Of a stretch of DNA of 59,020 nucleotides, positions 26,841 to 36,954 are shown one piece after another. The position numbers were made by a program, and so were the translations under genes. The notes under the pieces were generated by a model. The model saw only the letters and a list, made by a program, of their open reading frames with translations. It was not told the DNA's origin and ran no database searches. The stretch's first letter is position 1. Each line of letters opens with the position of its first letter. Source of the stretch: Desulfurococcales archaeon (GTDB lineage Archaea > Thermoproteota > Thermoprotei_A > Sulfolobales > NBVN01); NCBI GenBank assembly GCA_015523295.1, contig WAKQ01000010.1, positions 1-59,020 of the forward strand. The letters are read 5' to 3'.

Positions 26841-26928
26841 GCCGGGGTCGCCTAGCCCGGTAGGGCGCCGGCCTGCTAAGCCGGTGGGGTACGCCCCCGC
26901 GCGGGTTCGAATCCCGCCCCCGGCGCCA
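26841..26928 (+). tRNA. tRNA-Ser (anticodon GCU)
   Basis: Acceptor GCCGGGG pairs with CCCCGGC. The anticodon stem CCGGC/GCCGG holds loop CTGCTAA with anticodon GCT at 26875-26877. The T arm is GCGGG/CCCGC around TTCGAAT, and a long variable arm with a GGGG/CCCC stem marks it as class II serine. G73 and an encoded CCA (26926-26928) follow. No intron. The 3' half continues in frame into an integrase remnant and recurs in part at 28456, so it is the likely attachment site of an integrated element. Confidence 0.95.
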
Positions 26929-27427
26929 CACCCACACTCCTGAGCAACGGAGGGAGATTCTGAGGAGGTTGGTTGAGAATAATTACGTTATGGCCCTCGC
27001 CAAGGAGTTTTGGGTTGGGAGGGTTAGCATTTACAGATACATGAAGGGGGAGAGGACAATACCGCCTTCACTCGACCCTAAACTATGTAGTTTGATCAGC
27101 GAGAGGAGTTGCTGGCTCTACTAAATAACAGGAAGTTGCTTGAGAATGTGGGCATACTGAAGGAAGGAGATAACCTCACTAGTTAATAACAACCTTAACA
27201 CGGCACTAGAACATCCTACCGCAAGGGATGTTATACTGAAGCATATCGCTAAACGATATAAGACAGAGCTTCAAGAGCTTCTCTCGCAATCCCTACCTAG
27301 AGTCAAACTGAATTAAAGCGAAGGGTTGAGAATGGCTATGGATAATGGAGGAAAGGCGTGCATAGATGAGTTCAGTAATTCATGTAGCAGTAGCAACGTT
27401 ACTGAGGAGGCGCTGAAGCACCAATAG
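26864..27427 (+). pseudogene. decayed tyrosine-recombinase (archaeal integrase) gene fragment
   Basis: The frame through the tRNA 3' half reads on as RGFESRPRRH into TPEQRREILRRLVENN, then LAKEFWVGRVSIYRYMKGER, an N-terminal HTH region like that of archaeal tRNA-targeting integrases. It then shifts frame (EELLALLNNRKLLENVGILKEG) and shifts again (EHPTARDVILKHIAKRYKTELQ, then LPRVKLN). A stop stands where Trp is expected, and the rest is unrecognisable. The catalytic domain with R..HxxR..Y is absent. Several frameshifts and stops make this a relic. The open frame crossing the tRNA is the arrangement expected when the attachment core lies within the integrase gene. Confidence 0.65.
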
Positions 27428-27492
27428 CGATCCACGTGGTCCTAGTCTTAACTGGGCAGGGTAGTATTATTCTTGGTGTTTGGTGGAGATGT

Positions 27493-28185
27493 TCATGTGA
27501 GTTGGCTGTTGGATTGTTGTTTGGGTGTAAGGTCCTGTGGATTGATGAGGTGTTGCTTCAAGCCTGTAGGACTGCCCTTGGATTGAGGTTCCTGCGCCGT
27601 TGCTCTTAGTAACTGCTCATGACTTAGTGAACGGGAAGGCGAGTCAGAGCCCTCAAGCAAGATAGTGTCCATGTAAAACGGCTGGATTGAGCGCTTATGT
27701 AAGATAAGTTTCCTGGAATGAGTTTTACTGGACCGGTGATTCATGCCTCGGATAAAGTACTCATCACTGGAATACACGGTAACGCCTCTCTGAAGGATTT
27801 CCTTGATCTTGCTTTTATGTAGCTTGGCTTCTTCCATAAGCTTGACGTCATCCGTTATCAATGGCGCATTGAGCAGAGCTGCTGAAACTATATAGGAGGA
27901 GTCATAGTAGGTCAGCATTAATTCATGGGCTAATCTTAACACTACCATGCTATTTTTCGGACTCACAATGTTCAGACAGGTGAATAGCTTCAAAATCATG
28001 TTAAGTAAGGTTATTGCTTCACCAATTGTTAAGTTTTTCACTAACGTAGCCTCCTTCCATAAAGCATCGCCTATCTCATAGGGTATGAGCGTTAGGACGT
28101 AACTTCCCCTCAAGTACTGCAACGGGTTTGCTCCGTAAGCCCTAATGATGTTAAGCAAGGCTGATGCATCGAATAACGCTTTCAA
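27493..28185 (-). CDS. VapC-like PIN-domain ribonuclease toxin with long C-terminal tail
   Basis: Residues 1-140 form a PIN domain: FDASALLN (Asp6), PYEIGDALWKE (Glu near 38), YYDSSYIVSAALL (Asp near 94) and LITDD. PIN toxins cleave RNA, often tRNA. The TTG start overlaps the stop of an antitoxin stub (TTGA). Residues 141-230 are a Ser/Gln-rich tail of no recognised family, beyond the usual 130-145-residue VapC, and may be read-through into former non-coding DNA after loss of the stop. With no full antitoxin, the toxin may be inactive or controlled elsewhere. Confidence 0.7.
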   Translation of the reverse strand: MKALFDASALLNIIRAYGANPLQYLRGSYVLTLIPYEIGDALWKEATLVKNLTIGEAITLLNMILKLFTCLNIVSPKNSMVVLRLAHELMLTYYDSSYIVSAALLNAPLITDDVKLMEEAKLHKSKIKEILQRGVTVYSSDEYFIRGMNHRSSKTHSRKLILHKRSIQPFYMDTILLEGSDSPSRSLSHEQLLRATAQEPQSKGSPTGLKQHLINPQDLTPKQQSNSQLT

Positions 28186-28235
28186 CCATCTTCACGATTC
28201 TCCCTAATCACAGCAACGATTTCCTCGGCCTTAAT
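28182..28235 (-). pseudogene. C-terminal stub of a VapB-like antitoxin
   Basis: Directly upstream of vapC the minus strand reads KAEEIVAVIRENREDG and a stop, the type of tail found on VapB antitoxins. The stop overlaps the toxin start, as in normal vapBC operons. A TAA lies just two codons upstream of this stretch (28234 region) and no DNA-binding domain precedes it, so the antitoxin is 5'-truncated. Assigned from sequence character and position. Confidence 0.45.
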
Positions 28236-28455
28236 TTAAGGCTAAAGGGTGAACTTAACTAAACACTAAACTGTATATTAATTTATTGTTCTCCTCCTGG
28301 GACTTGCAAGAACAATAAGATGCATTCTCTGCTGATATCTTCTCATGGTATAGTTATGTATCCGGTCTATAATTCAACTCTTTTTAACCCTATCCTTTCT
28401 CATTTATTTCCATTCAAGGTTAGATATTGGATATAATTACTTTTATAGAGCTAGT

Positions 28456-28497
28456 CTGCTAAGCCGGTGGGTATGTCCTACACGGTGTTATAACCGC
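28456..28497 (+). repeat. degenerate second copy of the tRNA-Ser 3' half (att-like)
   Basis: CTGCTAAGCCGGTGGG (28456-28471) is identical to the anticodon loop, anticodon-stem 3' side and variable-arm start of tRNA-Ser at 26873-26888. The next 25 bp still resemble the variable and T arms, with mainly C-to-T and G-to-A changes. No tRNA 5' half precedes it. It therefore marks the far boundary of a 1.6-kb remnant element. The surrounding stretch 28236-28550 holds no gene and is AT-rich. Confidence 0.7.
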
Positions 28498-28550: not shown

Positions 28551-28976
28551 CTAGGCACTTCTACTTATGTTGTTGAAGGCTGAGAACGCGTCTATGAATC
28601 CGTAGATTAGGCTGGCCGCTATTACAGTGTAGATTATTGTTGATATGTTTATTGAGATCGATATTGTGTATCCGTTTGTGGTATAAGTCCCAGAGAGTTC
28701 ACCACCGTTTACTATTGTATAGAGGAAAAGCGCTCCGAGGAGCTTGGAAAGCATTCTAAGTGGTATGGAGATAGGGTGTGTCTTTAGGATTGACTCTCCC
28801 ACACCCAGGGCTATGAAGAACCATATATAGTAGGCTAGCACTCTTTCGCTTGGAACAGGTATTTTCATGAGTGAAGTGATGAAGTAGGGTAGAGTTATAA
28901 CGTAGATTAAGTAGTAGAGCAATCCTATTAGAACCCCTATGAGAACCTCTTTAACTATTTTCATAATTTCAGCCAT
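28551..28976 (-). CDS. unknown membrane protein, third gene of a three-gene operon
   Basis: About four hydrophobic segments span the protein (near residues 10-30, 45-60, 75-90 and 115-135), with a short polar loop containing NGGELSGTYTTNGYT between the last two. I recognise no family. The ATG at 28976 is preferred over a GTG 9 bases upstream. It overlaps the end of the preceding gene by 8 bp, which indicates translational coupling. A membrane complex with the two upstream products is likely. Confidence 0.6.
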   Translation of the reverse strand: MAEIMKIVKEVLIGVLIGLLYYLIYVITLPYFITSLMKIPVPSERVLAYYIWFFIALGVGESILKTHPISIPLRMLSKLLGALFLYTIVNGGELSGTYTTNGYTISISINISTIIYTVIAASLIYGFIDAFSAFNNISRSA

Positions 28977-29364
28977 GGGGACCACCTGAAACCTGGATCT
29001 TAATGGGGTAGAGGCCCGCTAGTCTGAAGGTGAGGATTACATTTAATTTCCCTTCCTCTATCTTAGAAGGCTCGGTAATGGAGGAGAGCATGTAAGTGCC
29101 CTTCCTGACCTCAGGTAAGGTGAACTTAACGCCGTAGAGAATTACTTCGAGGTGCTTAAGTGTAATTGTTCCACTATAGTTAAGTCTTAAGGTGACATTC
29201 ACATGCTTACTGTCGTTCGTCTCCTTAACACTTACAGGTGCTACAGTCAGGAGTTCCTGATGACTTGATAACATCTCGATGAAGAATACAGCTAATGGGG
29301 AAACCAGAGCTACTATTAATAGGGTCAGGATTGTTGCGACCCCGATTTTTGCTGCTGTGTACAC
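28969..29364 (-). CDS. unknown membrane-anchored extracytoplasmic protein
   Basis: An N-terminal hydrophobic helix (about 8-30) is followed by a 100-residue soluble domain rich in beta-strand-like alternation, with NVTL and NYSG glycosylation-type sequons. It ends in a Gly/Pro tail. The topology suggests a protein anchored by its N-terminus and exposed outside the cell. The GTG start lies within the preceding gene (40-bp overlap). No family recognised; a beta-sandwich domain is possible. Confidence 0.55.
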   Translation of the reverse strand: MYTAAKIGVATILTLLIVALVSPLAVFFIEMLSSHQELLTVAPVSVKETNDSKHVNVTLRLNYSGTITLKHLEVILYGVKFTLPEVRKGTYMLSSITEPSKIEEGKLNVILTFRLAGLYPIKIQVSGGPHG

Positions 29365-29651
29365 TTGTTAACACCTTTATCTATTCTATAGCTCTCGATT
29401 ACTGAGGAGATCCCATGGTTTAAGATCATTCCGCCGGACCATACAAGGATTCCTAAGAAACCGAGTTTAAGGACGAGATTCACAAGTTCGTAGGTAGTGT
29501 TCGTTATTGCCTGGTCAAGGCTTGAAGCCTTAGGCAGTACTGGTTTATAAGTTTGATAAGCATCATATGCGAGGTACGCTCCTAGACCAACTATTGCAAT
29601 CCCTATAATTACTAACATAAGGCCGATGATGTGCGGGTTAGCCAGCTTCAT
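29325..29651 (-). CDS. unknown two-helix membrane protein, first gene of the operon
   Basis: Two hydrophobic helices (about 7-30 and 58-80) enclose a polar loop with TNTTYEL, and the C-terminus is Gln/Ser-rich. The ATG at 29651 sits about 37 bp downstream of a TATA element (29686-29693). This 108-residue protein leads the three-gene operon ending at 28551. No family recognised. Confidence 0.55.
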   Translation of the reverse strand: MKLANPHIIGLMLVIIGIAIVGLGAYLAYDAYQTYKPVLPKASSLDQAITNTTYELVNLVLKLGFLGILVWSGGMILNHGISSVIESYRIDKGVNKCTQQQKSGSQQS

Positions 29652-36853: not shown

Positions 36854-36954
36854 GGGGCCGTAGTTTAGCTTGGGAGAATGCGGGGTTCGGGTCCTCACTC
36901 GCACGGCGGCGGAAGTCCCCGTGGTCCGGGGTTCAAATCCCCGCGGCCCCACCA
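36854..36954 (+). tRNA. tRNA-Pro (anticodon CGG) with 24-nt intron
   Basis: Acceptor GGGGCCG/CGGCCCC, D stem GTTT/GAAT, anticodon stem CGGGG/CCCCG, T arm CGGGG/CCCCG around TTCAAAT, A73 and encoded CCA are all present. The anticodon loop is T-T-C-G-G-G then T, with anticodon CGG at 36888-36890. A 24-nt intron (36892-36915) interrupts after position 37, the canonical archaeal site. A TATA-like CTTATATTAAA ends 15 bp upstream. Removal by the bulge-helix-bulge endonuclease is inferred. Confidence 0.9.
36892..36915 (+). other. tRNA intron (24 nt) in tRNA-Pro
   Basis: Removing these 24 nt restores a 7-nt anticodon loop TTCGGGT and a 5-bp anticodon stem. The ends could shift by one base. It contains a GC-rich CACGGCGGCGG stretch that can support the splicing helix. 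Confidence 0.8.

What the first reader, a model, noticed from the sequence alone, without database searches (positions are those of the whole stretch)
26841..28497. Remnant integrated element bounded by tRNA-Ser and a decayed tRNA 3' copy
The tRNA-Ser 3' half runs in frame into a decayed integrase N-terminal region. A 16-bp exact copy of CTGCTAAGCCGGTGGG starting in the anticodon loop occurs 1.6 kb on, followed by 25 bp of decayed tRNA sequence. Between them lie only the integrase relic, a toxin gene and an antitoxin stub. The two ends look like attL and attR of an old element that has lost nearly everything. The crossover in the anticodon loop is where many archaeal integrases act.
Basis: partly seen in the sequence, partly recalled or inferred. 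Interest (0 to 1): 0.7.

Follow-up and report, generated by a model that had tools for sequence, protein, structure and literature searches.

The report
Relic of a tRNA-integrated archaeal element
An uncultured heat-loving archaeon carries the worn-down stump of a mobile element that once inserted into a serine tRNA gene; it is a real but ordinary genomic fossil, useful mainly because it points to intact relatives with a slightly unexpected integrase layout.

Summary
tRNA-Ser(GCU) lies at 26841-26928. An exact 16-bp copy of its sequence, from the anticodon loop onward, recurs at 28456-28471 and nowhere else in the 933-kb draft genome. Between them lie an integrase relic, an orphan VapC (PIN) gene and a VapB stub. 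The relic matches an archaeal integrase family (Pfam Phage_integr_3; family-profile E 1.5e-15) over its N-terminal third only, with stops and a frameshifted bridge; the catalytic domain is gone. In relatives this integrase sits whole just downstream of a tRNA. Four such elements (about 9-32 kb) have right ends that repeat the tRNA 3' half from the anticodon region, as here. The same-genus relative that holds this tRNA has matching flanking genes but no element.

One correction: the in-frame run from tRNA into integrase is not an SSV-type overlap. Relatives have 109-268 nt between tRNA end and helix-turn-helix; here 14 remain, so spacer and start codon were probably deleted. The decayed tRNA tail beyond 16 bp is weakly supported (p about 0.01).

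Verdict: a dead remnant of a known kind of element, low interest. The better lead is the relatives' non-split integrase with an SSV-like catalytic domain.

The parts
26841..26928 (+). tRNA-Ser(GCU), intact; its 3' half from the anticodon loop on would be the copy brought by the element (attL)
   Evidence: ARAGORN and Rfam; 99% identical to the tRNA in same-genus G001
26873..26888 (+). attL core: CTGCTAAGCCGGTGGG, starting at the anticodon loop
   Evidence: exact direct repeat
26939..27331 (+). integrase relic, N-terminal third (HTH and following helices), three in-frame stops, start codon and spacer missing
   Evidence: match to intact integrase residues 8-143, E 7.7e-11; family profile columns 31-161, E 1.5e-15; spacing
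27097..27174 (+). section of the integrase relic that reads in the neighbouring frame (two frameshifts)
   Evidence: family profile columns 83-108 in that frame, weak alone (E 2-3) but collinear
27757..28185 (-). orphan VapC-type PIN toxin gene; its frame runs on to 27493 because the native stop is lost
   Evidence: 64% identity to G002 over 143 aa; PDB 1v8p E 4.5e-8; relatives' frames end earlier
28185..28235 (-). VapB antitoxin stub: only the C-terminal end IKAEEIVAVIRENREDG
   Evidence: relatives have a full VapB directly before vapC ending ...PPEEIVAVIRESREER
28456..28471 (+). attR: displaced copy of the tRNA sequence from the anticodon loop
   Evidence: exact repeat, single extra copy in the genome
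28472..28498 (+). probable decayed continuation of the displaced tRNA 3' half
   Evidence: anchored similarity, p about 0.008; weak

Best explanation
A tRNA-integrating element entered tRNA-Ser(GCU) by a tyrosine-recombinase crossover in or beside the anticodon loop. The element brought its own copy of the tRNA 3' half, which keeps the tRNA whole, and pushed the original 3' half to its far end (28456). Its integrase gene stood intact just downstream of the tRNA on the same strand (the Type II, non-split arrangement). Later the lineage lost the integrase spacer and start, its catalytic domain and nearly all cargo. A VapC gene, a VapB stub and two att scars remain in about 1.6 kb, and the element can no longer excise by itself. 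Shown: the two tRNA-derived copies, the integrase relic and its missing parts, the state of vapBC, the intact relatives, the element-free relative. Inferred: that the two repeats were the att sites of one element, the order of the deletions, and the original size (relatives are about 9-32 kb).
For: Exact 16-bp tRNA repeat in direct orientation, beyond chance and single in the genome. Integrase relic with significant family match. 19 of 26 family members lie just downstream of a tRNA 3' end on the same strand. Four intact elements have attR copies of the tRNA 3' half that begin in or next to the anticodon loop. Same-genus G001 has the same upstream genes and the downstream MATE gene but no integrase and no repeat. 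The gene trio right after attR is a set found in other genera.
Against: The sequence right after the tRNA is not conserved between G000 and G001, so the exact empty-site join cannot be aligned. The tRNA similarity beyond 16 bp is weak. No intact element at tRNA-Ser(GCU) was found in the relatives examined.
Confidence: 0.88

Rival explanations
1. An SSV-type (suicidal) element: the tRNA 3' half is part of the int reading frame, and integration split int into int(N) and int(C).
For: The tRNA 3' half reads in frame into the relic without a stop, and the intact relatives carry the Phage_integr_3 domain, which the 2021 review links with suicidal families.
Against: In the relatives the gene is whole beside the tRNA: in 15 of 19 loci the int frame is closed between tRNA and start, and in four elements with both ends known no int(N) lies before attR. 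In an SSV-type case the tRNA-side piece would hold the catalytic C-terminus, which is the part missing here.
Confidence: 0.05
2. The element was larger: the right end lies beyond the three-gene set at 28551-29651, near the MATE gene, and the 28456 repeat is internal or from another event.
For: The trio is absent from G001 and lies between the repeat and the conserved MATE gene.
Against: No further copy of the tRNA sequence exists downstream, and the trio is a gene set present in other genera.
Confidence: 0.06
3. The vapC gene and VapB stub are not cargo of this element but a chromosomal or later insertion into its remains.
For: VapC shows pairwise dN 0.25 against dS 1.66 to G002 and an open frame, while the integrase is heavily decayed; the three nearest vapBC relatives are not next to an integrase or tRNA in the 2.5-3.4 kb seen.
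Against: It lies between the two att scars, and an intact relative (G026) carries a PIN gene near its own right end.
Confidence: 0.35

Closest known systems
Type II (pNOB8-type, classical) archaeal integrative elements in tRNA genes
   Same: Integrase gene intact and immediately downstream of the restored tRNA on the same strand; displaced tRNA 3' half at the far end (as described in PMC3293823 and PMC8371274)
   Different: Family members carry Phage_integr_3 and mostly KXXR, not the YXXR signature given for pNOB8-type; the window copy is a dead remnant
SSV-type (suicidal) archaeal integrases: SSV1/2, pTN3, pT26-2
   Same: Pfam Phage_integr_3 catalytic domain, KXXR signature, tRNA target; crossover bordering the anticodon loop reported for SSV1 (PMC8371274)
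   Different: Gene not split by integration in the relatives examined; N-terminal HTH domain; att lies before the gene
Islander-type tDNA genomic islands, anticodon subclass
   Same: tRNA plus displaced 3' fragment in direct orientation (PMC4383910)
   Different: At 1.6 kb and without an integrase ORF it would fail Islander's 2-kb length and integrase filters
VapBC toxin-antitoxin systems
   Same: PIN-domain VapC, similar to PAE2754 (PDB 1v8p), with VapB remains directly upstream
   Different: VapB almost gone and the VapC stop lost

Membership tests
tRNA-integrated mobile element (remnant) | tRNA and a displaced 3' tRNA fragment in direct orientation | tested here: met
   16-bp exact copy; longer tail weak
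tRNA-integrated mobile element (remnant) | integrase gene or relic inside, next to the tRNA | tested here: met
tRNA-integrated mobile element (remnant) | absent from the same site in relatives | tested here: met
   G001 and nine other tRNA-Ser(GCT) loci lack relic and repeat in the sequence available; the exact empty join could not be aligned
Type II (non-split) integrase element | int gene remains whole after integration | tested here: met
   met for the intact family members; in the window only inferred, because the relic is truncated
Type II pNOB8-type integrase | R...YXXR...Y signature | tested here: not met
   22 of 26 relatives have KXXR; the relic lacks this region
SSV-type suicidal integrase | att inside int, gene split by integration | tested here: not met
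   relatives not split
SSV-type suicidal integrase | Phage_integr_3 domain and KXXR signature | tested here: met
   met for relatives; not testable on the relic
VapBC toxin-antitoxin pair | PIN-domain VapC | tested here: met
VapBC toxin-antitoxin pair | complete VapB directly upstream of vapC | tested here: not met
   only about 17 C-terminal residues left

The most novel reading that the evidence does not exclude
The relic belongs to a widespread Sulfolobales/Desulfurococcales integrase family that combines the SSV-like Phage_integr_3 catalytic domain and KXXR signature with an N-terminal HTH and that stays whole when integrated. If phylogeny places it as the non-suicidal sister or ancestor of the SSV, pTN3 and pT26-2 suicidal integrases, it would show what the enzyme looked like before att moved into the gene. 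The 2021 review names the Phage_integr_3 families as suicidal.
Probability: 0.35. Interest if true: 0.45.

Novelty: new member of a known kind. Interest (0 to 1): 0.22.

Why it matters
As a fossil it documents one more tRNA integration site, tRNA-Ser(GCU) entered at the anticodon loop, and how far such elements can erode while leaving diagnostic scars; automated island finders with length and integrase filters would miss it. The wider value lies in the intact relatives: a tRNA-targeting archaeal integrase family with an SSV-like catalytic domain that does not destroy its own gene on integration, which bears on how suicidal integration evolved.

Tried and rejected
Catalytic-domain pieces of int on either strand up to 29000: none by family profile; a weak reverse-strand blastx hit (E 2-5) was not confirmed by the profile and is treated as noise. 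A second relic or element at tRNA-Ser(GCT) in ten relatives: none in the downstream sequence available, 0.2-10 kb. att repeats were not found for seven other integrases in the downstream sequence fetched. The SSV-type reading of the in-frame fusion was rejected from the relatives' spacing and gene integrity. NCBIfam gave nothing informative for VapC or the membrane genes (one query there was a short hand-typed fragment with letters not from the window and is disregarded). Pfam alone does not recognise the relic or the VapC above cut-off; closer relatives were needed.

Full report
The window comes from an uncultured archaeon near Desulfurococcales MAGs. The closest named record by DNA polymerase is JALWQN010000077, a 17,773-base contig titled Desulfurococcales archaeon (72% identity), which has the same length as G001:C77, the same-genus genome used below. 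That the order is Sulfolobales in GTDB terms is my inference from the named relatives and genome sizes.

Observation. tRNA-Ser(GCT) is at 26841-26928 on the + strand. CTGCTAAGCCGGTGGG occurs at 26873, starting two bases before the anticodon, and again at 28456. It has no other exact copy in the 933-kb, 77%-complete draft. In shuffled copies of the 3 kb downstream, a 12-base match to the tRNA appeared in 0.6% of trials, so a 16-base match is not chance. The next 27 bases resemble the tRNA remainder only weakly: p about 0.008 anchored and ungapped, while 18% of genomic 45-mers do as well in the gapped test.

Integrase relic. The frame that leaves the tRNA encodes a helix-turn-helix stretch that matches the N-terminus of an intact 434-residue protein in relative G026, which carries Pfam Phage_integr_3 (E 2.3e-18) and HTH domains. 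Searched back against the whole draft, that protein hits only this locus, residues 8-143, E 7.7e-11, with one TGA and two TAA inside. A profile built from 26 relatives gives E 1.5e-15 over columns 31-161 of 438. A short piece in the neighbouring frame (columns 83-108) bridges a frameshifted section. Nothing of the catalytic domain is present on either strand, and 150 control translations from elsewhere in the window gave nothing better than 0.06.

Intact relatives. 80 of 197 genomes searched have a match to this integrase, the weakest of which may be other tyrosine recombinases. Of 26 extracted family members, 19 lie on the same strand just downstream of a tRNA 3' end (Arg, Thr, Gly, Ser or Asp), with 109-268 nt from tRNA end to the HTH start; the window has 14. 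Four elements have a locatable right end: G095 (17 kb, tRNA-Arg), G003 (32 kb, tRNA-Thr, same family as the host), G086 (11 kb, tRNA-Ser GGA) and G026 (9 kb, tRNA-Arg). Their repeats cover the tRNA 3' half and begin in or next to the anticodon loop, as in the window. In all four the integrase is not split: in three its frame is closed between att and the start codon, and in the fourth (G086) the frame closes four codons before att in the circular junction. Cargo in these elements includes a PIN gene (G026) and BrxL with an Eco57I-type methylase (G095).

Element-free relative. G001 has tRNA-Ser(GCT) with the same KaiC-like and ferredoxin genes upstream and the same MATE gene downstream, but 0.9 kb instead of 3.0 kb between tRNA and MATE, with no integrase and no tRNA repeat. 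Nine other relatives with this tRNA also lack both in the downstream sequence available. The stretch after the tRNA is not conserved, so the exact empty join cannot be aligned. In the window the ORFs at 28551-29651 have homologs in other genera, with the trio order kept in several, so they are taken as host genes beyond attR.

Toxin gene. The ORF at 27493-28185 (-) begins as a VapC-type PIN protein (64% identity over 143 residues to G002; PDB 1v8p, PAE2754, E 4.5e-8). The open frames of most near relatives end after 149-157 residues; here the frame runs on to 230, so the native stop is lost. Relatives have a complete VapB directly before vapC; here only its last 17 or so residues remain. Pairwise dN 0.25 and dS 1.66 against G002 suggest that the coding part was under selection for most of the shared history, unlike the integrase; dS is near saturation. 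Whether vapBC was cargo or a later arrival is open.

Mechanism. Established knowledge (PMC8371274, PMC3293823, PMC4383910): tyrosine integrases recombine attP with a tRNA attB, the element restores the tRNA 3' half, and the displaced original half marks the far end. The window fits this with the crossover in or beside the anticodon loop. The element is now dead: no start codon before the HTH, stops, a frameshifted section and no catalytic domain.

Classification. By arrangement the relatives are Type II (gene intact). By catalytic domain and the KXXR motif in 22 of 26 they resemble the SSV group, whose Phage_integr_3 families the 2021 review describes as suicidal. No paper found in the held library describes this combination, but that library is partial and no phylogeny was made here. 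This is the only part that might be new, and it concerns the relatives rather than the relic.

Score. The finding is real and in the main correctly interpreted, but it is an ordinary fossil; interest 0.22.

Noticed in passing
L066-L092; elements in G095 (L100), G003 (L104, L105), G086 (L108), G026 (L096): A tRNA-adjacent integrase family with Phage_integr_3 and an N-terminal HTH stays unsplit in integrated elements, although families with this domain are described as suicidal.
   Followed up: partly
L100 6610-11713: The 17-kb G095 element at tRNA-Arg carries BrxL and an Eco57I-type methylase, which looks like BREX-type defence cargo.
   Followed up: no
window 27493-28185 (-): The VapC frame is extended by about 87 codons past the point where most relatives stop, and it has no antitoxin; orphan toxin genes of this kind could show how a toxin is tolerated.
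   Followed up: partly
window 36854-36954 (+): The tRNA that ARAGORN left unassigned is tRNA-Leu(CAA) with a 24-nt intron in the anticodon loop.
   Followed up: yes
window 28551-29651 (-): Three small membrane-type ORFs form a conserved unnamed gene trio in several genera of the order; no Pfam family above cut-off.
   Followed up: partly
L055, between tRNA-Ser and MATE: In G001 the place after tRNA-Ser(GCT) holds a different membrane protein gene on the opposite strand, so the spot turns over between close relatives.
   Followed up: no
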